From assembly GCA_016210115.1 (NCBI GenBank), contig JACQUW010000292.1, forward strand, positions 1 to 64,000: a DNA stretch of 64,000 nucleotides. Reading direction: 5' to 3'. This stretch comes from Deltaproteobacteria bacterium. Lineage in GTDB: Bacteria; Desulfobacterota; Binatia; UBA9968. The number at the start of each line of letters is the position of its first letter. The first letter of the stretch is position 1. Below, in pieces: positions 43,716 to 54,259 of the stretch. The position numbers and the translations under genes were made by a program. Below the pieces are notes generated by a model. It was given only the letters and a program-made list of their open reading frames with translations. It did no database searches and had not been told where the DNA came from.

Positions 43716-44672
43716 ATGACGAGCAGCCCGCACGAATACTCATCATCCGCTCGGCCACGGCCCGAAAACTCCCGCCCTGAGGAACCGCCCGTCGAGGAGG
43801 CTCAGGACATGGTTTTGCAGGAATACTCTGAAGAGGATGTGGGGAATATCCTCCTGTTGGAGCACGTCAACCTCGGAGTTCCCGACCAGGGTACTGCAAC
43901 TCTTTTTTATGTCGTCGGCCTCGGCCTAACCCGCGACCCGTATCTGTCGGTGAGTGTCGAGAACATGTGGATCAACGCAGGGGAGCAGCAATTTCATCTT
44001 CCAACCCGGGCCGCGCAGGTGGTTCCGGGCCATATTGGAGTGGTGGTTCCCAGCCTCAAACTCCTGGAGGCCCGACTCGAGTCCGTGCGGGAGCGACTCT
44101 CAGGAACCGGTTTCGGCTGGACCGTAAAGGCAGACCACCTGGAAATCTCATGTCCCTGGGGAAACCAACTGCGGTGTTATGAGCCGAGTCCCGAATTCGG
44201 GAGCGCGATTTTGGGAATTCCGTACGTGGAGCTTCGCGTGAGACCGGGGAGCGCTGATGGCATTGCGCGTTTCTACCTGGAAGCCCTGAAAGCCCCTGCG
44301 ACGGTTTATTCTGAAGGCGGCGCGCGTGTGGCTCGGGTCTCCGTTGGATGCAACCAGTGGCTCTCGTTCCGTGAATGGCATGGCGAAATACCGCCATACG
44401 ACGGGCATCATATTGCAATATACATCGCTGATTTTTCCGGTCCATACGGTTTCCTTAAGCGGCGCGCGAAGATTACGGAGGTCAGGCGGCATCAGTTTAG
44501 GTTTCAGGAGGTGCTGGATCCACGAAGCGAAGAAACGCTGCTCATTTTAGAGCACGAGGTGAGGAGCCTGCGTCATCCGATGTACCGTCGTTTTCTGATC
44601 AATCGAGAGCCGACCCAAATTCAGCGAAACTACAGGCGCGGAAGGGATTCCCTGAACCCTTTCGGGTTCTGA
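43716..44672 (+). CDS. VOC-family (glyoxalase-like) protein
   Basis: LLLEHVNLGVPDQGTATLFYVVGLGLTRDPYLS... and second half LGIPYVELRVRPGSADGIARFYLEALKAPATVY; two betaalphabetabetabeta-like modules. Confidence 0.65.
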   Translation: MTSSPHEYSSSARPRPENSRPEEPPVEEAQDMVLQEYSEEDVGNILLLEHVNLGVPDQGTATLFYVVGLGLTRDPYLSVSVENMWINAGEQQFHLPTRAAQVVPGHIGVVVPSLKLLEARLESVRERLSGTGFGWTVKADHLEISCPWGNQLRCYEPSPEFGSAILGIPYVELRVRPGSADGIARFYLEALKAPATVYSEGGARVARVSVGCNQWLSFREWHGEIPPYDGHHIAIYIADFSGPYGFLKRRAKITEVRRHQFRFQEVLDPRSEETLLILEHEVRSLRHPMYRRFLINREPTQIQRNYRRGRDSLNPFGF

Positions 44673-45007: not shown

Positions 45008-46150
45008 TTGCCAGCGGCCAGCCGAACGGGAGGAGCTAAGGCCGGAATCCTGATGCCCCAATTTTTTGCAGGGGAAAAGATCCTCGTGGTTCAGACGAGC
45101 TTTCTGGGGGACGTGGTTTTGACGACGCCCGTTTTCTCGGAGATCCGAAGTCGTTTTCCAAAAGCATGGCTGGCTGTTCTCTGCAAGCCGGAAGCCAAAC
45201 CTTTGCTGGAGGGGAATCCCGACATCAATGAAATCATCGTTGATGACAAGAGAGGGACCGCGAAGGGACTGAGAGGACTCTGGCGGAAGGCCGCAGATCT
45301 CAGGCAGCGCGGTTTTTCGGTGGCTCTTTCTCCCCACAAATCGTTTCGGACGGCTTTGCTTCTTTTCGCGGCGCGGATTCCGTTCCGCGTCGGGTTTCGC
45401 CAAAGCGCAGGTTGGTTTTTATATCATTCGTTGGCCGAACGGGATCCGGATCTGCACGATGTCGAACGAAATCTCTCGATCTTGAAGCCGCTCGGTGTGG
45501 GAACGCAGTCCTGTCATGGAGCGCTCCGAGTCGAGGTGCTTCCAGGCGCGCGCGAAAGTGTGGATCGTCTGTTCGCTTCTCTGGGAATCGGAGACGGCCG
45601 GATCACTTTCGGCTTGAATCCCGGCTCCGTGTGGCCCACGAAAAGATGGCTTCCGGAAGGTTACGCGGAGTTGATGGTCTCTTTGAAACGGAAATATTCC
45701 TGTGACCTCTGTCTTTTTGGTGGTCCGGGTGATCAGGAAATCACGGATAGAATACAACGGCTTTCCGGTAATCTCGGGATCAATCTGGCGGGCAAGTTGT
45801 CTCTCGCCGAACTCGCCTGCGCCTTCGAGAAATGTGATCTCCTTATCACCAACGACAGCGGACCTATGCACATCGCTGTCGCCAGGCAGGTCCCGGTGGT
45901 CGCTATTTTTTGCGCGACTACACCGTCTCTGGGATTTTATCCTTACTCTTCCGCGGCTGTTGTCGTCGAAAAAAATCTGCCCTGCCGTCCATGCAGTTCG
46001 CATGGAGGACGTCGTTGCCCCCTCGGCACGGGGGATTGCATGCGTTTAATAAAGGCGGAGGATGTGCTTAAAGCCGTTGATCGGCTTTTGAACGGAAGCA
46101 GGAGAGGCGCTCAAAAAGAATCCCGGCTGCCGGAATTCCTCGTTCTCTAG
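45008..46150 (+). CDS. waaF: ADP-heptose:LPS heptosyltransferase II (WaaF-like)
   Basis: ILVVQTSFLGDVVLTTPVFSEIRSRFPKAWLAVL...FGLNPGSVWPTKRWLPEGYAELM...LLITNDSGPMHIAVARQVPVVAIF. Confidence 0.92.
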   Translation: MPAASRTGGAKAGILMPQFFAGEKILVVQTSFLGDVVLTTPVFSEIRSRFPKAWLAVLCKPEAKPLLEGNPDINEIIVDDKRGTAKGLRGLWRKAADLRQRGFSVALSPHKSFRTALLLFAARIPFRVGFRQSAGWFLYHSLAERDPDLHDVERNLSILKPLGVGTQSCHGALRVEVLPGARESVDRLFASLGIGDGRITFGLNPGSVWPTKRWLPEGYAELMVSLKRKYSCDLCLFGGPGDQEITDRIQRLSGNLGINLAGKLSLAELACAFEKCDLLITNDSGPMHIAVARQVPVVAIFCATTPSLGFYPYSSAAVVVEKNLPCRPCSSHGGRRCPLGTGDCMRLIKAEDVLKAVDRLLNGSRRGAQKESRLPEFLVL

Positions 46151-46159
46151 CCAGTCTCC

Positions 46160-46936
46160 ATGCCCACCCTTGGCGTTGTCATTCTAACTTTGAATGGAAT
46201 GAAGCACGTTGCGCAGTGCGTGGAAAGCGTCAAGTGGGCAGATCGAATCATGGTGCTGCACGTCGGAGACGGCGCCCCCGCCATACTTGCGGGAGAATGC
46301 TCTTGTCTTGTTTATCGCCGGGTTGGATCCACAGAAACCCTCGATGGGCTGCCTCAAGAAATGAACACAGACTGGATTTTGAATCTTTGGGGCGAGGAGA
46401 CGGTCGATGCGGCGCTCAGGGATGAACTGGCAGCTCTTTGCCGGAAGCCAGTCCAGAGGGACCTGGATTCGTATCGAATTCCCATTCGTTCCTTGTTGAT
46501 GGGCCGGTGGGTGGACGGTAGTGTGTGGGAACCCAGCCCTGCGACTCGTCTGGGCCGCCAGTTCAGCCTTTTTCCGGCCGGCTGGCGCAGCGGGTTGGGC
46601 AACGGCAAAAGGAGGATCCCTCTGCTGGGACGAGGGTCGATTTGCGACCACACCTTATCCGAGCTTGATTATGGACTGCGGCAGATTCAAAACGTGTCGG
46701 ATCTTTGGGCAAGGCTGTCGCAAGGCCGGAGTCCCGGCTCATTCGCGATGATCGGTTCTCCCCTCCGCACATTCTTTCGACTTGTGTTCCGGAACCGCGC
46801 TTTGTCAAACGGAATAGCGGGCTTGACCGTTGCCACGCTGGCTGCCTACGCGACCTTCTTGAGCATGGCCAAACTGTGGGAGGCGCAAAAAGGCAAGGAG
46901 GGGAAAGACCACAAGGATCGCGGCTGTGATCTCTAG
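46160..46936 (+). CDS. Degenerate WaaE/KdtX-like GT2-family protein (likely catalytically inactive)
   Basis: VVILTLNGMKHVAQCVESVKWADRIMVLHVGDG... aligns along its length with the intact GT2 at 53459 but lacks NEE, DSxSTD and DADE motifs; conserved C-terminal hydrophobic tail. Confidence 0.6.
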   Translation: MPTLGVVILTLNGMKHVAQCVESVKWADRIMVLHVGDGAPAILAGECSCLVYRRVGSTETLDGLPQEMNTDWILNLWGEETVDAALRDELAALCRKPVQRDLDSYRIPIRSLLMGRWVDGSVWEPSPATRLGRQFSLFPAGWRSGLGNGKRRIPLLGRGSICDHTLSELDYGLRQIQNVSDLWARLSQGRSPGSFAMIGSPLRTFFRLVFRNRALSNGIAGLTVATLAAYATFLSMAKLWEAQKGKEGKDHKDRGCDL

Positions 46937-47195
46937 CTGCCCTAACCGCGTTATTCACGGCGCCCGGCGCCTGAGAGGCGAGCCTTTCCGGTCGAGAGCA
47001 AAAGGCCTTTGCCTTGAAGCGGTCTTCGTAGCTTCAGATCTGGAGCGAACGCTTGAGAGAAATGGCCAAGTACCAGAGAAGTCATCGAAGCTGCACGGTC
47101 CCTTCGACTCTGCTGCTCAGGACAGGCCTGTGCCCTCTCTCTTCAAGGCTTACCCTCAGGCTTCACCGTTACGGCTTTTCCTCGGTCGGTGAATA

Positions 47196-47972
47196 ATGTG
47201 GGTTAGCTGTGTTTGGGGTGAAACGCCGGCGGGTTTTGAGAGGGTCTGCGCCGGTTCGAAACGGCTAATGGTGGTCAGGCGAGGACTGGAGGGCTACCTG
47301 GACTTAGAAGCTCTTATAAGCCAGAGAGAAACAGCTCAACCGGCGAGTCCGTTTCACGGGCGAAGTCGCCTCTCATTTCTCCGGCTTGGCAATGGCGAGA
47401 CGGCTCTGGCGCGCGCGTATCATCATGGAGGCGTCTTGCGCCATCTCACCGGCGACCTTTTTTTTACGTGGCCGCCGCGGCCTTTCAGGGAATTGGCTAT
47501 TACCGAGGAGGCGCGTCATCGAGGGGTATCGACGGTGGAGGTTTTGGGGGCGGGTGTGCAAAGATTATGGGGGCCTCTTTACCAGGGCTGGCTCTTTACC
47601 CGAGAGCTCACGGGAGCCAGAGATCTCTGGGCCGCGGTGCAGAGCGGGTTTGCCCTGCCGGCGATGGATCCTGTCTTGAAAGCAGTGGCCCAAAGTGTTT
47701 GCGCCATGCATCGCAAGGGGATCTATCATCGGGACCTGAATCTTAAGAACATTCTCGTGCGTTGGGAAGAAGACCGGATCAGAAGCTACTTGATCGATTT
47801 CGATAAAGCGAGGCTTTTCCCCGGGGAAATCCCGGCATCAAAGGCCCGTCACAACCTGAGGCGGCTGCAGCGTTCGGCCCATAAACTGGATCCCGAGAGC
47901 CGTTTTTTCGGCCCCTCGGAATGGGATCGTTTTTTCCGGTTCTATCAGGAAGCCCGTGGAGATGAAGATTAA
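47196..47972 (+). CDS. LPS-core kinase (WaaP/KdkA/InaA-like), copy 1
   Basis: GIYHRDLNLKNILVRWEEDRIRSYLIDFDKARLF: kinase catalytic loop HRDxNxxN and metal-binding DFD. Confidence 0.85.
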   Translation: MWVSCVWGETPAGFERVCAGSKRLMVVRRGLEGYLDLEALISQRETAQPASPFHGRSRLSFLRLGNGETALARAYHHGGVLRHLTGDLFFTWPPRPFRELAITEEARHRGVSTVEVLGAGVQRLWGPLYQGWLFTRELTGARDLWAAVQSGFALPAMDPVLKAVAQSVCAMHRKGIYHRDLNLKNILVRWEEDRIRSYLIDFDKARLFPGEIPASKARHNLRRLQRSAHKLDPESRFFGPSEWDRFFRFYQEARGDED

Positions 47973-49008
47973 GCCCAGCAAAATCCTCATCGTCCTTCAT
48001 GGCTCTATCGGGGATGTGACGCGGGCCATTCCTTTGGCGAATTTGATCAAGCGCGCTTACCCAAAGGCCGTTCTGGCATGGGCTGTAGAGCCATTGGCGT
48101 TTCCGCTTCTCCAGAATCTCCCGGCTATAGACGAGATCATCCTGTTTGACCGGCGCTGCTGGTGGAGGAGTGCAATCCCTTTCTTGCGTGAGATCCGTTC
48201 AAAGGGTTTTGAAATGGTCCTCGACCTGCAAAGACATTTCAAGAGCGGTCTCGTCAGTTGGTGCTCAGGGGCCCCTTATCGTTTGGGTTTTCATCGCCGG
48301 GATGCGAAGGAATTCAACTGGCTCTTCAACAACCTCCATATTCCGGCGTCCGATCATGAGATCTCAAAGTTTGACCACTACTTGAGATTTGCGGCGTTTC
48401 TGGACATTGAGCCGCGGCCGATCGAATGGGGATTTGAGTTGACGATCGAAGAGGAGAAGAGCGTGCGGGGCCTTTTGCGGGGAGTGAACGCTCCGTTCGC
48501 TGCGATTTTCGTCGGAAGCAGTTGGAAGAGCAAACAATGGTTTCCCGGGCAGACCGCCAAAACCGCCGCGCTGCTTCATGACCGCTTTGGGTTGGACATT
48601 GTTCTTCTGGGTGGAGAAGGAGATGTGAGTTTTGCCGGCGAAGTAGCGGGTTTTGTCTCCGCGGGGCTTCGAAACCTTGTTGGGCGAACCTCCCTCCGCG
48701 AAGCCATCGGGGTTCTTCGACGAGCGGAGCTCGCCGTAGGACCCGATACCGGTCTCATGCATCTTTCCGCGGCCGTGGGAACGCCTGTCGTGTCCTTGTG
48801 GGGCGCGACCAGCCCCGTCCGTACAGGCCCTTATGGCAACGAACAGTACGCGATACGGGGAAAGGCTGATTGCTCCCCGTGTTACCTTCGGGATTGTCCT
48901 ATTGGCCGGATCTGTATGCAATCGATCGGGATAGACGAGGTGGCGACGAAAGTCGAAAAAATCCTCTTTCAGAAAACTAGAGTCTATGGGAGCCAGAAGC
49001 AGGTTTGA
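47956..49008 (+). CDS. Heptosyltransferase (WaaC/WaaF family, GT9)
   Basis: ILIVLHGSIGDVTRAIPLANLIKRAYPKAVLAWAVEPLAFPLLQ...LAVGPDTGLMHLSAAVGTPVVSLWGATSPVRTGPYG. Confidence 0.92.
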   Translation: MEMKIKPSKILIVLHGSIGDVTRAIPLANLIKRAYPKAVLAWAVEPLAFPLLQNLPAIDEIILFDRRCWWRSAIPFLREIRSKGFEMVLDLQRHFKSGLVSWCSGAPYRLGFHRRDAKEFNWLFNNLHIPASDHEISKFDHYLRFAAFLDIEPRPIEWGFELTIEEEKSVRGLLRGVNAPFAAIFVGSSWKSKQWFPGQTAKTAALLHDRFGLDIVLLGGEGDVSFAGEVAGFVSAGLRNLVGRTSLREAIGVLRRAELAVGPDTGLMHLSAAVGTPVVSLWGATSPVRTGPYGNEQYAIRGKADCSPCYLRDCPIGRICMQSIGIDEVATKVEKILFQKTRVYGSQKQV

Positions 49009-49888
49009 GTTCCGGCGGGAAGGGTCATGGAATCTCCTGGTCTCTCCGGAAAGCTGGAGTCAGGATCTTTGGGAGGAAGTCCTCAGTCAAATCAAAAGAA
49101 TTGCCCCCTCCGGCCATCCGCAAACGACGCGATTCCGGCTTGATCAGGTCGTCTCCGCCGAGGAATATTACCTCAAGGTCTATCATGACTTGGACCTCTG
49201 GACGGGTCTCAAGGACGCGCTCCGAGACTCCAAAGCCTTGCGTGCGTTGAAGCAGGGCGAGGCTTTGAGATGTCGAGGATTTGATGTTCCACTCGCCGTT
49301 GCTGCAGGGGAGAAGAGGCAATTCGGGTGGCTTCAAAAAGCTTTTTTGTTGACCCGCGCCGTAAAGGCATTGCCGCTGCCTGATTTTCTGCGGGAGCAGG
49401 CGTGCATGCCGGCCCGAGTGATCGGGATGCGAATCAAGAGGGAGCGCGTCAAAAAGCTTGCGCTGGAAGTTCGTCGCCTCCACCAGGACGGCTTTGTTCA
49501 TGGCGATTTGATTCCAAGCAATATTATGGTGCAAACTGACGCTGGGAGATTTATCTTTTACATCATCGATCACGACCGCACTCGCCGCTATCCGCGTTGG
49601 GTTCCCCACCAGCTGTGGAAGAGAAATCTGGTCCAGTTGAACCGTATGGTTTTACCGGGAATCTCCCTGCAGGACCGGATGTGGTTTCTTAAGTGTTATC
49701 TCGGGAAAAAGTCCTGGGAGAAACGGGACCGCCGGCTGATCCGCTGGCTGGAATGGAAGACGCGTAAGCGACGGCAGGAATGTGAACGCATCCAGGCTCA
49801 GGTGAGTTTCAGAGAGTTAATGCGGTGGAACGGCCCGTTCAGCGGGTCGGCGCCGCAAAAGGATAACAGGTTGATCCAGTGGCATTGA
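48986..49888 (+). CDS. LPS-core kinase (WaaP/InaA-like), copy 2
   Basis: GFVHGDLIPSNIMVQTDAGRFIFYIIDHDRTRRY; N-lobe YYLKVYHDLDLWTGLKDALRDSKALRALKQGEALRCRGFDVPLAVAAGE. Confidence 0.82.
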   Translation: MGARSRFEFRREGSWNLLVSPESWSQDLWEEVLSQIKRIAPSGHPQTTRFRLDQVVSAEEYYLKVYHDLDLWTGLKDALRDSKALRALKQGEALRCRGFDVPLAVAAGEKRQFGWLQKAFLLTRAVKALPLPDFLREQACMPARVIGMRIKRERVKKLALEVRRLHQDGFVHGDLIPSNIMVQTDAGRFIFYIIDHDRTRRYPRWVPHQLWKRNLVQLNRMVLPGISLQDRMWFLKCYLGKKSWEKRDRRLIRWLEWKTRKRRQECERIQAQVSFRELMRWNGPFSGSAPQKDNRLIQWH

Positions 49889-50634
49889 TGATTAAACAGG
49901 GCGGCAAGCGCGTTGACCTATTTTCGTTTATGACGCCCGGCAAGATTTTGGATTTTCCCGCCGGGGAGGGAAAGGAGTCTAACGATCTACTTGAAATGGG
50001 CTTCCGGGTAATTGCCGCGGATCTTTTTCGGCCAAAAGAGAATGCGCGACCGGAGTACGTTCTCGCCGATGGCAACACTGTTTTTCCCTTCCGGGCCGTG
50101 GCCTTTGATTATGTTCTCTCCAGAGAAGGAATCGAGCACCTGGAAAACCAGGCGCAGTTTCTGAGGGAGTGCGCCCGGGTGCTCAAGACGGGAGGAAAAC
50201 TGGTTCTTACGACTCCGAACGTGCTTCACCTGAATGGCCGCGTGAGCTGGCTGCTTACGGGCCAGAGGATACTCAAACGGGGGCTGATTAATGAGGTGCA
50301 GACCGTCAGGAAAATCGACAACGGCAAGATCTACCATGGTCACGCTTTTCTGATTGATTACTTTCGTTTGCGCTACTTGTTACGGCTCTCAGGATTTGAC
50401 GGCATAGAGGTCTATACCGACCGGTACAGCCTGTCGTCCATAATCTTTCTTTGGTTGGTGCCGCTTCTGTTCACGGCTGCGCTGCTGTCCGTGAGGATGT
50501 CAATGACAAAGGATCGTAAAAAGCGGAAATTCTATGCCTACAAACCGCCTTTTAAAGAGATCTTGACGCACGTTTTTTCTCCAGCATTGCTTTTTGGCAA
50601 GAGAATGATGGTGGTGGCGGAAAAGAGGACATGA
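49888..50634 (+). CDS. Class I SAM-dependent methyltransferase
   Basis: ILDFPAGEGKESNDLLEMGFRVIAADLF...FDYVLSREGIEHLENQAQFLRECARVLKTGGKLVLTTPN. Confidence 0.85.
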   Translation: MIKQGGKRVDLFSFMTPGKILDFPAGEGKESNDLLEMGFRVIAADLFRPKENARPEYVLADGNTVFPFRAVAFDYVLSREGIEHLENQAQFLRECARVLKTGGKLVLTTPNVLHLNGRVSWLLTGQRILKRGLINEVQTVRKIDNGKIYHGHAFLIDYFRLRYLLRLSGFDGIEVYTDRYSLSSIIFLWLVPLLFTAALLSVRMSMTKDRKKRKFYAYKPPFKEILTHVFSPALLFGKRMMVVAEKRT

Positions 50635-51776
50635 AAATTGCCTTGGCCCATAAGCGCCTCGACCTTAGGGGAGGTACGGAAAGGGTTCTCTTTCGTACGG
50701 CGGAAGGTCTCAGGGACCGGGGTCACGAGGTGCACCTCTTTTGCGGAGAATTCCGCCTGCCGCCGCCGGCAGGAGTTATCGCCCATGAGGTTCCTTATCT
50801 GCCGTGGCCGCGAACCGCGCGCCTGCTGAGTTTTGCTCTGTGGGCTCCAAAGATCATTGCCCGCCATTCCTGCGACGTGGTGATGAGTTTTGACAAGATG
50901 GCGCGGCAGGATGTTTTTCGCAGTGGCGGAGGACCTCATCGACTCTTCCTGGAGAAGATGAAGAAACAAAGCAGTTGGTGGCGGGCACTCGGGTATCGGT
51001 TGAGCCCCTACCATCGCTCCGTTCTCCGCATCGAAAGGAGACAACTCGGACCAGCCGGAACTCGAAAGATTATTGCTGTTTGCGACCAGGTGAAGCGGGA
51101 CTTGATGGAGGCTTACGGCCTGTCCGATGAGAAGATTAGGGTTATCCATAACGGGGTGGACCTTGAACGGTTTCACCCTAAGCGCCGCTGTGAGATTGGG
51201 ACAAAACTGCGGGATGATTTGGGAATGCTTCCCGGCCGGCCCGTCGTCTTGTTTGTCGGGACCGGTTTCCGTCGCAAAGGGCTGGACCGGCTTCTCTCTC
51301 TCTGGGACCGGGATGACTTTCGGGAAACTTATCTGTGGGTTGTCGGCAATGATGCCCACCTTCCTCGTTACCGCCATCGGTGGGGACGTAAAGAAATCCT
51401 TTTCCTGGGAGCGCAATCTCGGGTGGAAGACTATTATGCCGCAGCGGACCTGCTCGTCCTGCCCTCTGTTCAGGAAGCTTTTGGAAATGTCGTGTTGGAG
51501 GCGCTTGCATCGGGCCTTCCCATAGTTACGATCCGGGGAGTAGGAGCGACCGATCAGATGGATGGGCCCCTAAGAGAGGGTATTCTCAAAGATTCTGAGA
51601 ACCCGGAGGAGTTAAGGGGAACAATCCTGAAGCTGCTCGACCCTAGCCAGTGGCCTTTCCTTTCCCGGGAGGCGAGGCGGATAGCGGAAAAATTTTCGTG
51701 GGAAAAATATCTCAACCAAGTCGAGTGGGCTCTGCGCGAAGTTTCGAGCGGCTCGCCTTCTTATGAGCCTCTCTGA
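50631..51776 (+). CDS. Glycosyltransferase family 4 (WaaG-like)
   Basis: KRLDLRGGTERVLFRTAEGLRDRGHEVHLFC...VIHNGVDLERFHPKRR...YAAADLLVLPSVQEAFGNVVLEALASGLPIVT. Confidence 0.9.
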   Translation: MKIALAHKRLDLRGGTERVLFRTAEGLRDRGHEVHLFCGEFRLPPPAGVIAHEVPYLPWPRTARLLSFALWAPKIIARHSCDVVMSFDKMARQDVFRSGGGPHRLFLEKMKKQSSWWRALGYRLSPYHRSVLRIERRQLGPAGTRKIIAVCDQVKRDLMEAYGLSDEKIRVIHNGVDLERFHPKRRCEIGTKLRDDLGMLPGRPVVLFVGTGFRRKGLDRLLSLWDRDDFRETYLWVVGNDAHLPRYRHRWGRKEILFLGAQSRVEDYYAAADLLVLPSVQEAFGNVVLEALASGLPIVTIRGVGATDQMDGPLREGILKDSENPEELRGTILKLLDPSQWPFLSREARRIAEKFSWEKYLNQVEWALREVSSGSPSYEPL

Positions 51777-52587
51777 AACCGTTTGCGATCTCGAATTCGC
51801 CTATTTGAATCGGTCTTTAATGGATCAACTTCAAATTGACGTTTCGACCGTCGCGGAGGCTTTCCGCGAAGAGGCAGACAATTGCATCGCGAAAACGGGG
51901 CAAAAAACCTTGGTGCGGCTCATTTCTCTTGGCTCCCAAAGGCTCTTTTTGAAGTTCTACACCGCGCGCGGCCCGTCTCGCTGGATCCGCGGCTCGGCGC
52001 GAAGGCGTGTTTTGCGCGCCTACGCCAATGCCTGTCGGCTGAACGTTCTGGGAATCAAGACGGCGCCTATCCTGGCAGTGATTCTGCGGGATGTGGAGAG
52101 GACAGGCGGCTGCAGCGGGCTCGTGACGCTCTCCTTGTCTCCGGCCAAGACTCTCACGCTTTTTTTTATGGAACAGCTTCCGGTTCCGGGTCATGAGGCG
52201 GCGCGACGTGTCCTTATCAAGCGGCTCAGCGACTTTCTTTGCGGACTGCACGATCGTGGAGTATACCCAAAGGACTTTAAAGACACGAACGTCCTGGTTC
52301 GTCAGTGCGGCGATGACCACCGGTTCTATATCGTGGATTGCGACGGCCTCTTGTTTTTGCGATCTCTCTCGCGGAGGCGGCGGATGAAAAATCTCGCTCA
52401 GATCGGCATCACGCTCGGAGAGGCTTTATCGCCGGCTGAGCGTCTTCTGTTCTTGAGCGCCTATGCCAATCGCTATCCCGAGCTAAAGATGGATCTCGAA
52501 CGAGTGGAACTGGGCTGGAAAAAAGCGATCGAGCGGCGCCAACTCCAGAGGGATCGTTTGACCACCATTCGCTCCAGGGGGCTGTAA
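51763..52587 (+). CDS. LPS-core kinase-like protein (WaaP/InaA-like), copy 3, altered catalytic loop
   Basis: GVYPKDFKDTNVLVRQCGDDHRFYIVDCDGLLF occupies the catalytic loop/metal site, with HRD replaced by PKD; N-lobe LFLKFYTARGPSRWIRGSARRRVLRAYANACRLNVLGIKTAPILAV. Start could be 51820. Confidence 0.75.
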   Translation: MSLSETVCDLEFAYLNRSLMDQLQIDVSTVAEAFREEADNCIAKTGQKTLVRLISLGSQRLFLKFYTARGPSRWIRGSARRRVLRAYANACRLNVLGIKTAPILAVILRDVERTGGCSGLVTLSLSPAKTLTLFFMEQLPVPGHEAARRVLIKRLSDFLCGLHDRGVYPKDFKDTNVLVRQCGDDHRFYIVDCDGLLFLRSLSRRRRMKNLAQIGITLGEALSPAERLLFLSAYANRYPELKMDLERVELGWKKAIERRQLQRDRLTTIRSRGL

Positions 52588-53458: not shown

Positions 53459-54259
53459 TTGACGAAGAGTCTCGAACTTCCGGCGAAATCGGAAATCTCC
53501 GCGATCGTGGTTTGCTTCAACGAAGAAGATAACATCCGGGAGTGTCTGGAGAGCCTGAAGTGGTGCAACGAAATCGTGGTCGTGGACTCCTTCAGCACCG
53601 ACCGGACCTTGGAAATTTGCCGGCGCTATACGGATCGGGTGTTCCAGCGACCGTGGGCGGGCTATCGTGATCAAAAATCTTTTGCGCATTCGCAGGCAAC
53701 GAAGGATTGGGTTTTCCTGGTGGATGCGGATGAGCGTGTGACGCGCGAGCTCAGAGCTGAAATTCAGGCTGCGCTAAGCCGGTTCGGGAACCGGGTGGCC
53801 GCCTTCTCTGTGCCGCGTCTCGTCTACTATTTAGGCCGGTGGTGGTGGAGAGGCGGGTGGTACCCGGATTACGACATCCGTTTGTTCCGTCGCGATCGCG
53901 CCCGATGGGGAGGCCTGGATCCCCACGAAAAAATCCTGGTGGATGGAGAAATTCGACGCTTGAGCCATCCGCTGCATCACTTTTCCTACAGAAATATTCG
54001 GGACCATATCGAGCGGATCAATCACTTTACCACCGTTTCATCCAAAGAGCTGAAGCTCCAGGGAAGGCGATGGCGGTGGTCCGATAATCTGCTCAGGCCG
54101 CCTTTCCGCTTTTTCAGGTCTTATCTCTGGAAGAGAGGTTTTCTCGAGGGGTTTCCGGGTTTCTTTGTCGCCGTGACAGGTGCGGTGTACGTCTTTCTCA
54201 AGTATGTGAAGCTCCGCGAGCTGGAGCTAAGAGAGCGGGAGCAAGAAGGACGTGCGTGA
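53459..54259 (+). CDS. Glycosyltransferase family 2 (WaaE/KdtX-like LPS core)
   Basis: EISAIVVCFNEEDNIRECLESLKWCNEIVVVDSFSTDRTLEICRRYTDRVFQRPWAGYRDQKSFAHSQATKDWVFLVDADERVTRELRAEI; TTG start. Confidence 0.93.
   Translation: MTKSLELPAKSEISAIVVCFNEEDNIRECLESLKWCNEIVVVDSFSTDRTLEICRRYTDRVFQRPWAGYRDQKSFAHSQATKDWVFLVDADERVTRELRAEIQAALSRFGNRVAAFSVPRLVYYLGRWWWRGGWYPDYDIRLFRRDRARWGGLDPHEKILVDGEIRRLSHPLHHFSYRNIRDHIERINHFTTVSSKELKLQGRRWRWSDNLLRPPFRFFRSYLWKRGFLEGFPGFFVAVTGAVYVFLKYVKLRELELREREQEGRA

What the first reader, a model, noticed from the sequence alone, without database searches (positions are those of the whole stretch)
46160..46936. Intact WaaE/KdtX-family glycosyltransferase that has lost all catalytic signatures
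Seen: this ORF aligns over most of its length with the normal GT2 at 53459-54259 (VESVKWADRIMVL vs LESLKWCNEIVVV; YRIPIRSLLMGRW vs FSVPRLVYYLGRW; the C-terminal LRTFFRLVFRNRALSNGIAGLTVATLAAYATFLSMAKLWE tail vs FRFFRSYLWKRGFLEGFPGFFVAVTGAVYVFLKYVKLRE). N-E-E is N-G-M, DSFSTD is HVGDGA and VDADE is LWGEE. Established: GT2 enzymes need the nucleotide-sugar/metal-binding DxD-type residues. Inference: a pseudo-glycosyltransferase kept in the LPS-core cluster 10 bp after waaF, perhaps a scaffold, chaperone or regulator of another core transferase.
Basis: partly seen in the sequence, partly recalled or inferred. Interest (0 to 1): 0.72.

Follow-up and report, generated by a model that had tools for sequence, protein, structure and literature searches.

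The report
Dead glycosyltransferase paired with LPS kinase
This gene encodes a relative of a sugar-adding enzyme that lost its catalytic residues long ago but has been kept for ages next to an endotoxin-core kinase gene, shrinking to a short tail in one bacterial family and fused to that kinase in another, so it probably works as the kinase's partner or membrane anchor rather than as an enzyme.

Summary
The ORF at 46160-46936 (258 aa) is an intact GT2/WaaE-type homolog whose donor-site residues are gone. It is not recent decay: 11 relatives carry orthologs, intact and without the motifs, between waaF and a Kdo/WaaP-family kinase gene (KdoK1). A sister clade lacks the gene at exactly that spot.

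The important part lies outside the window. The waaF-[X]-KdoK1 slot also exists in four other families of the class, and X is always a descendant of this lineage: full-length pseudo-GT (f1, f2, f10), eroded 214-231 aa (f7), only the ~85-105 aa C-terminal tail (f6, 14 genomes), or fused in frame to KdoK1 (f8, 6 of 6 genomes checked). A tree of the tails separates all slot proteins from the canonical GT2s with 100/97 support. The tail is under purifying selection even where no GT domain remains.

Best explanation: a glycosyltransferase-derived, non-catalytic accessory subunit, probably a membrane/acceptor docking module, of the adjacent core kinase. Its suggested client (another transferase) is probably wrong: the fusions and a joint loss point to the kinase. 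Interaction and membrane function are inferred, not shown. The host taxon is not named by the tools.

The parts
46160..46936 (+). pseudoGT: catalytically empty GT2/WaaE-type protein, 258 aa, the finding itself
   Evidence: AlphaFold2 pLDDT 87, pTM 0.85; Foldseek PDB hits are GT2/GT-A enzymes such as SunS, WrtF, TarS and SpsA, prob 1.0
46193..46201 (+). N12-G13-M14, replaces the NEE motif of the first loop; G13 and M14 are 91% conserved in the orthologs
46259..46261 (+). His34, invariant in 11 orthologs, in place of the nucleotide-binding Asp43 of the canonical GT2
46388..46399 (+). W77-G78-E79-E80, replaces the metal-binding D-A-D-E; E80 invariant, W77 in 10 of 11
46646..46648 (+). Asp163, invariant in 11 orthologs, in place of a canonical invariant His (H174); the DPHE motif upstream is gone
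46739..46882 (+). C-terminal helical tail (residues 194-241, ending AKLWE): the only part kept in every slot protein, and the whole protein in family f6
45008..46150 (+). waaF1, heptosyltransferase II, upstream gene of the conserved slot
   Evidence: TIGR02195 above cutoff; adjacent in all 12 pseudoGT genomes
47196..47972 (+). KdoK1, Kdo/WaaP-family kinase with HRDLN and DFD motifs present; proposed partner, fused to the pseudoGT in family f8
   Evidence: PF06293 E=1.5e-28; alignment; fusions
47956..49008 (+). hepT2, second heptosyltransferase of the conserved block
48986..49888 (+). KdoK2, second Kdo/WaaP-family kinase
53459..54259 (+). canonical GT2 (WaaE/KdtX-like) with all motifs intact; active paralog present in 24 of 26 family genomes

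Best explanation
The protein descends from a WaaE/KdtX-type GT2 but is no longer a transferase. It is a non-catalytic accessory subunit of the LPS-core kinase encoded next to it (KdoK1, Kdo/WaaP family). Its C-terminal amphipathic/hydrophobic tail, which in the parent enzyme probably docks the catalytic domain on the membrane and lipid-linked core acceptor, now docks the kinase at the site where waaF1 and the rest of the core machinery work. The inert GT-A domain, which keeps part of the non-donor side of the fold (W117, R130-L131), may hold the core acceptor or the kinase. Shown by sequence: GT2 descent, loss of the donor/metal residues, one ancient lineage at a fixed slot, purifying selection, retention of the tail alone in one family, in-frame fusion to the kinase in another, and joint absence with the kinase in one genome. 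Inferred: physical interaction with the kinase, membrane tethering, stimulation or targeting of kinase activity, and absence of any residual catalysis.
For: Fusion: in all six family-f8 genomes checked, the slot protein and KdoK1 are one ORF of 462-494 aa with kinase motifs intact. Slot: waaF1-[X]-KdoK1 is conserved across f1, f2, f6, f7, f8 and f10. X is full length but motif-less in f10 (A4 vs canonical A6 E=6e-15), eroded in f7, and tail-only in 14 f6 genomes (A1 vs A3 E=3e-12). A tree of tails puts all 28 slot proteins on one side of a branch against 18 canonical GT2s, support 100/97. Tail-only genes have dN/dS 0.11-0.55, and the f8 pseudo-domain 0.30-0.36. The tail is among the best-conserved 48-residue segments in f8 and f7. 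G046 (98% complete), of family f7, lacks both KdoK1 and the slot protein. The canonical GT2 copy is itself in one ORF with another WaaP-like kinase in f6 and f10, so this GT2 type associates with core kinases more than once. The tail is hydrophobic and basic (KD19 1.63, net +6).
Against: Twelve relatives keep waaF1 and KdoK1 without the gene, so the kinase does not need it everywhere. No interaction, expression or LPS structure was measured. The f6 tail is only mildly hydrophobic (KD19 0.94), so membrane insertion is doubtful there. Adjacency to waaF1 is as constant as adjacency to KdoK1, so waaF1 could also be the client; only the fusions and the G046 joint loss discriminate. The pseudoGT evolves 1.3-3 times faster (dN/dS) than waaF1.
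Confidence: 0.55

Rival explanations
1. It is still a glycosyltransferase that works without a canonical DxD, using new residues (His34, Glu80, Arg110, Asp163 are invariant) and a different donor.
For: Metal-independent GT-A enzymes exist: the bacterial GT6 clade has NXN and GT14 has no DXD at all (PMC3961637). Some invariant polar residues sit at former active-site columns in the window's clade.
Against: Beyond DxD, the nucleotide-binding Asp43, Asp48, NEE and DPHE are lost as well. The replacement residues are not shared between families (f10 keeps the first Asp but loses the rest), and f6 keeps no GT domain at all at the same slot.
Confidence: 0.13
2. It is a scaffold or partner of the heptosyltransferase waaF1 (or of the whole core complex) rather than of the kinase.
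For: waaF1 lies immediately upstream (about 10 nt) in nearly all f1/f2 genomes and is the constant upstream neighbour in f6, f7, f8 and f10. Analogies: inactive partners of transferases such as EryCII (PMC3391682, abstract) and IRX9 (PMC4132061).
Against: No fusion to waaF1 was seen in any genome, whereas fusion to KdoK1 occurs in 6 of 6 f8 genomes checked. G046 keeps waaF1 but lacks both KdoK1 and the slot protein.
Confidence: 0.15
3. It is a core-oligosaccharide-binding (lectin-like) acceptor sensor or presenter that keeps acceptor binding but not donor binding.
For: Residues away from the donor site (W117, P125, R130-L131) are shared with the canonical enzymes.
Against: The GT domain is dispensable in f6 and heavily eroded in f7 and f8.
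Confidence: 0.1
4. It is a decaying duplicate without function, kept by chance.
For: Relaxed rates relative to neighbours (dN/dS 0.15-0.43 against 0.03-0.18 for waaF1, GT2 and RelA); clean loss in one clade.
Against: No stop codons or frameshifts in the intact copies of 11 genomes (one more is cut by a contig end) at 38-48% identity; tail-only genes and f8 fusions also under purifying selection.
Confidence: 0.07

Closest known systems
WaaE/KdtX-type GT2 core glycosyltransferases (PF00535)
   Same: Homologous over the full length (hhalign E=2e-25), same predicted fold, same C-terminal tail, same LPS-core neighbourhood.
   Different: NEE, DxD, nucleotide Asp and DPHE are gone; below detection by Pfam and NCBIfam; sits beside KdoK1 at a separate locus from the canonical copy.
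Kdo kinase KdkA / heptose kinase WaaP (PF06293)
   Same: The family of its neighbour and, in family f8, its fusion partner.
   Different: The pseudoGT itself is not a kinase; no accessory subunit of a Kdo/WaaP kinase turned up in the open-access searches.
EryCII, inactive P450 homolog that activates the transferase EryCIII (PMC3391682)
   Same: A dead enzyme homolog kept as an activator of a working enzyme.
   Different: Different fold; its client is a transferase and the complex was shown by crystal structure.
IRX9 of plant xylan synthesis (PMC4132061)
   Same: A GT-fold protein whose catalytic residues are dispensable and whose role is structural.
   Different: Another GT family (GT43); it supports a transferase, not a kinase; experimentally shown.
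MurE-MurF fusion and MurG scaffold (PMC6420597)
   Same: A fused pair from one cell-envelope operon used as evidence for a cytoplasmic enzyme complex.
   Different: All partners there are active enzymes.

Membership tests
WaaE/KdtX-type GT2 glycosyltransferase (as an enzyme) | GT-A fold and sequence homology over the full length | tested here: met
WaaE/KdtX-type GT2 glycosyltransferase (as an enzyme) | Nucleotide-sugar and metal residues (NEE, D in DSFSTD, DxD) | tested here: not met
   E22, D43, D48, D89, D91 lost in 11 of 11 orthologs (Glu at the second DxD Asp in 10 of 11)
WaaE/KdtX-type GT2 glycosyltransferase (as an enzyme) | DPHE/His motifs of the acceptor/catalytic side | tested here: not met
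   D154, P155, H156, E157, H174, H183 lost
WaaE/KdtX-type GT2 glycosyltransferase (as an enzyme) | Curated family score (Pfam/NCBIfam) | tested here: not met
   no hit
WaaE/KdtX-type GT2 glycosyltransferase (as an enzyme) | Transferase activity | not testable with these tools
   needs biochemistry
Retained pseudoenzyme | Orthologs intact, motif-less, under purifying selection | tested here: met
Retained pseudoenzyme | Active paralog in the same genomes | tested here: met
   all 12 pseudoGT genomes also carry a canonical copy
Kinase accessory subunit | Constant genomic pairing with KdoK1, including fusion | tested here: met
Kinase accessory subunit | Physical interaction and effect on kinase | not testable with these tools
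   needs pull-down or LPS analysis
Membrane-docking module | Amphipathic/hydrophobic C-terminal tail | tested here: inconclusive
   KD19 1.63 in the window protein, 1.38 in f8, 0.94 in f6

The most novel reading that the evidence does not exclude
A glycosyltransferase has been turned, step by step and still visibly in living families, into a non-enzymatic targeting subunit of an LPS-core kinase: dead full-length protein, then eroded domain, then bare membrane tail or kinase fusion. The C-terminal tail of WaaE-type GT2s would then be a separable docking module.
Probability: 0.4. Interest if true: 0.75.

Novelty: new variant of a known kind. Interest (0 to 1): 0.6.

Why it matters
Dead relatives of glycosyltransferases are known as helpers of transferases, mostly in eukaryotes or natural-product pathways. 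One that serves an LPS kinase, with a graded series of domain loss at one locus, would show how core-oligosaccharide enzymes are held together at the membrane. It would also identify the GT2 C-terminal tail as a functional part that can act alone. It warns annotators too: a short hypothetical ORF between waaF and a Kdo kinase in these bacteria is probably a real gene. The series makes a testable prediction, that the tail alone binds or targets the kinase.

Tried and rejected
Recent decay: rejected by intact orthologs and dN/dS. Independent origin of the f6 tail-only gene from that family's own canonical GT2: rejected by the tail tree. Origin from the window's own canonical GT2 by recent duplication: rejected, since the slot lineage is separated by a very long branch and is shared by several families. 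Wider spread: a profile search of 396 phylum genomes found only canonical GT2s beyond the class in the best hits read. Hits in families f11, f3, f12, f14 and f5: waaF1 is not recognisable there, so the slot could not be read. Naming the organism: genome contigs failed three times and was then capped, so families are given only as the tool's anonymous codes. The first AlphaFold2 model with 11 sequences was weak (pLDDT 71); the one with 31 sequences is good. A mixed alignment of fusions with stand-alone pseudoGTs misplaced the latter and was used only to read the kinase motifs.

Full report
What is there. The ORF at 46160-46936 (+) is real: 258 aa, ATG start, 9 nt after the waaF stop. It aligns with the window's normal GT2 at 53459-54259 at 22% identity, E = 4e-12 for the single comparison. 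Profile against profile the relation is beyond doubt: E = 2e-25 over residues 2-247. An AlphaFold2 model from 31 sequences has mean pLDDT 87 and pTM 0.85. Its PDB matches are GT2/GT-A enzymes such as SunS, WrtF, TarS and SpsA, at probability 1.0 although with modest TM-scores (0.4-0.5), perhaps because of the tail. No Pfam or NCBIfam family recognises it, and no Pfam family recognises any of its orthologs.

What is lost. Against 38 canonical relatives, 44 columns conserved at 90% or more are lost in the 11 orthologs. They include Glu22 of NEE, Asp43 and Asp48 of DSFSTD, both Asp of DxD, the DPHE stretch, His174 and His183. The Glu after DxD is kept in all, and the second Asp is Glu in 10 of 11, so an acidic pair survives. 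The clade has fixed residues of its own at the old active-site columns (H34, E80, R110, D163).

It is not recent decay. Of 60 genomes searched (the window's own among them), 11 relatives carry an ortholog (10 complete, one cut by a contig end) at 38-48% identity, without stops and with the same motif loss; all of them also carry a canonical copy. A profile search of 151 class genomes gives the 12 members at E < 1e-42; the next hits, at 1e-29, are canonical GT2s. dN/dS is 0.15-0.43, above the neighbours' but far below 1. In trees of RelA and of waaF1, carriers and non-carriers fall on opposite sides of one branch with 100% support. The gene always lies between waaF1 and a Kdo/WaaP-family kinase gene (KdoK1), where the contig allows this to be read. 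In 12 relatives without it, waaF1 and KdoK1 abut (at most about 135 bp from the waaF1 stop to the KdoK1 match in 11, overlapping frames in the other) with no remnant between them.

The slot across the class. In family f6, the same slot holds a short ORF that matches only the pseudoGT's C-terminal residues ~175-246. It is found in 14 genomes, shows dN/dS 0.11-0.55, and matches both the pseudoGT tail (E = 3e-12) and the canonical tail (E = 1e-13). In f10 the slot holds a full-length protein of 239-247 aa without NEE or DxD but with the first Asp kept; its profile matches the canonical GT2 at E = 6e-15. In f7 it is eroded to 214-231 aa. In f8 the slot protein and KdoK1 form one ORF of 462-494 aa in all six genomes examined. 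A tree of the tails alone puts all 28 slot proteins against all 18 canonical GT2s on one branch, support 100/97. The simplest reading is one ancient paralog at one locus, with several outcomes: dead full length, eroded, tail only, kinase fusion, and loss in one clade of f1.

Why the kinase. Fusion of two genes that are neighbours elsewhere is a standard sign of functional association; the same argument is used for MurE-MurF (PMC6420597). G046, a 98% complete genome of family f7, has waaF1 followed directly by hldE and lacks both KdoK1 and the slot protein, while its relatives have both. The canonical GT2 is itself in one ORF with another WaaP-like kinase in f6 and f10. No fusion with waaF1 was seen. 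The kinase keeps its HRDLN and DFD motifs, so a dead transferase is paired with a kinase that looks alive.

Proposed mechanism. The tail, with a basic amphipathic helix and a hydrophobic helix ending in AKLWE, would dock on the inner membrane or on the lipid-linked core acceptor and bring KdoK1 there. The inert GT-A domain would be an optional holder. The sequence history is shown; interaction, membrane docking and effect on phosphorylation are inference. The f6 tail is only weakly hydrophobic, which weakens the membrane step there.

Rivals. An atypical but active transferase is possible in principle, because metal-independent GT-A enzymes exist (PMC3961637); but far more than DxD is lost, the replacement residues differ between families, and one family keeps no GT domain. 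A waaF1 partner remains possible from adjacency alone. An acceptor-binding lectin-like role is not excluded for the full-length forms. Neutral decay is disfavoured by selection in three families.

Limits. Families are anonymous codes because the tool hides names and the named collection did not answer. Many genomes are draft and some slots are cut by contig ends (G008, G020, G026). KdoK1 downstream of the tail-only gene was read in six of the 14 f6 genomes. hhalign E-values are for single comparisons. No interaction test was possible.

Noticed in passing
L016-L018, L022 (family f6) and L013, L019 (family f10): The canonical GT2 lies in one open frame of about 570-650 aa or more behind a WaaP/Kdo-type kinase domain, so kinase-GT2 fusion also happened with the active copy, in the opposite domain order.
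   Followed up: partly
window 46937-47195: A 259-bp gap separates the pseudoGT from KdoK1 in the window, while orthologs have only a few to about 100 bp or overlapping frames; its origin is unexplained.
   Followed up: no
window 47196-52587: Three divergent Kdo/WaaP-family kinase genes (47196-47972, 48986-49888, 51763-52587) lie in one core-LPS cluster.
   Followed up: partly
L218, L223, L224, L225 (family f10): The f10 pseudoGTs keep the first nucleotide-binding Asp (LDPA) but lose NEE and DxD, so the active site was lost in different orders in different families.
   Followed up: partly
L236 (genome G046, family f7): waaF1 is followed directly by hldE; KdoK1 and the slot protein are both missing from a 98% complete genome.
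   Followed up: yes
window 43716-44672: A 318-aa ORF upstream of waaF1 with no Pfam match above cutoff; by eye it resembles a glyoxalase/VOC-type protein.
   Followed up: no
G000 (the window's assembly): The assembly is 8.3 Mb in 431 contigs with 8.9% contamination, larger than the other genomes of its family, so parts of it may be foreign; the slot itself is confirmed by its relatives.
   Followed up: no
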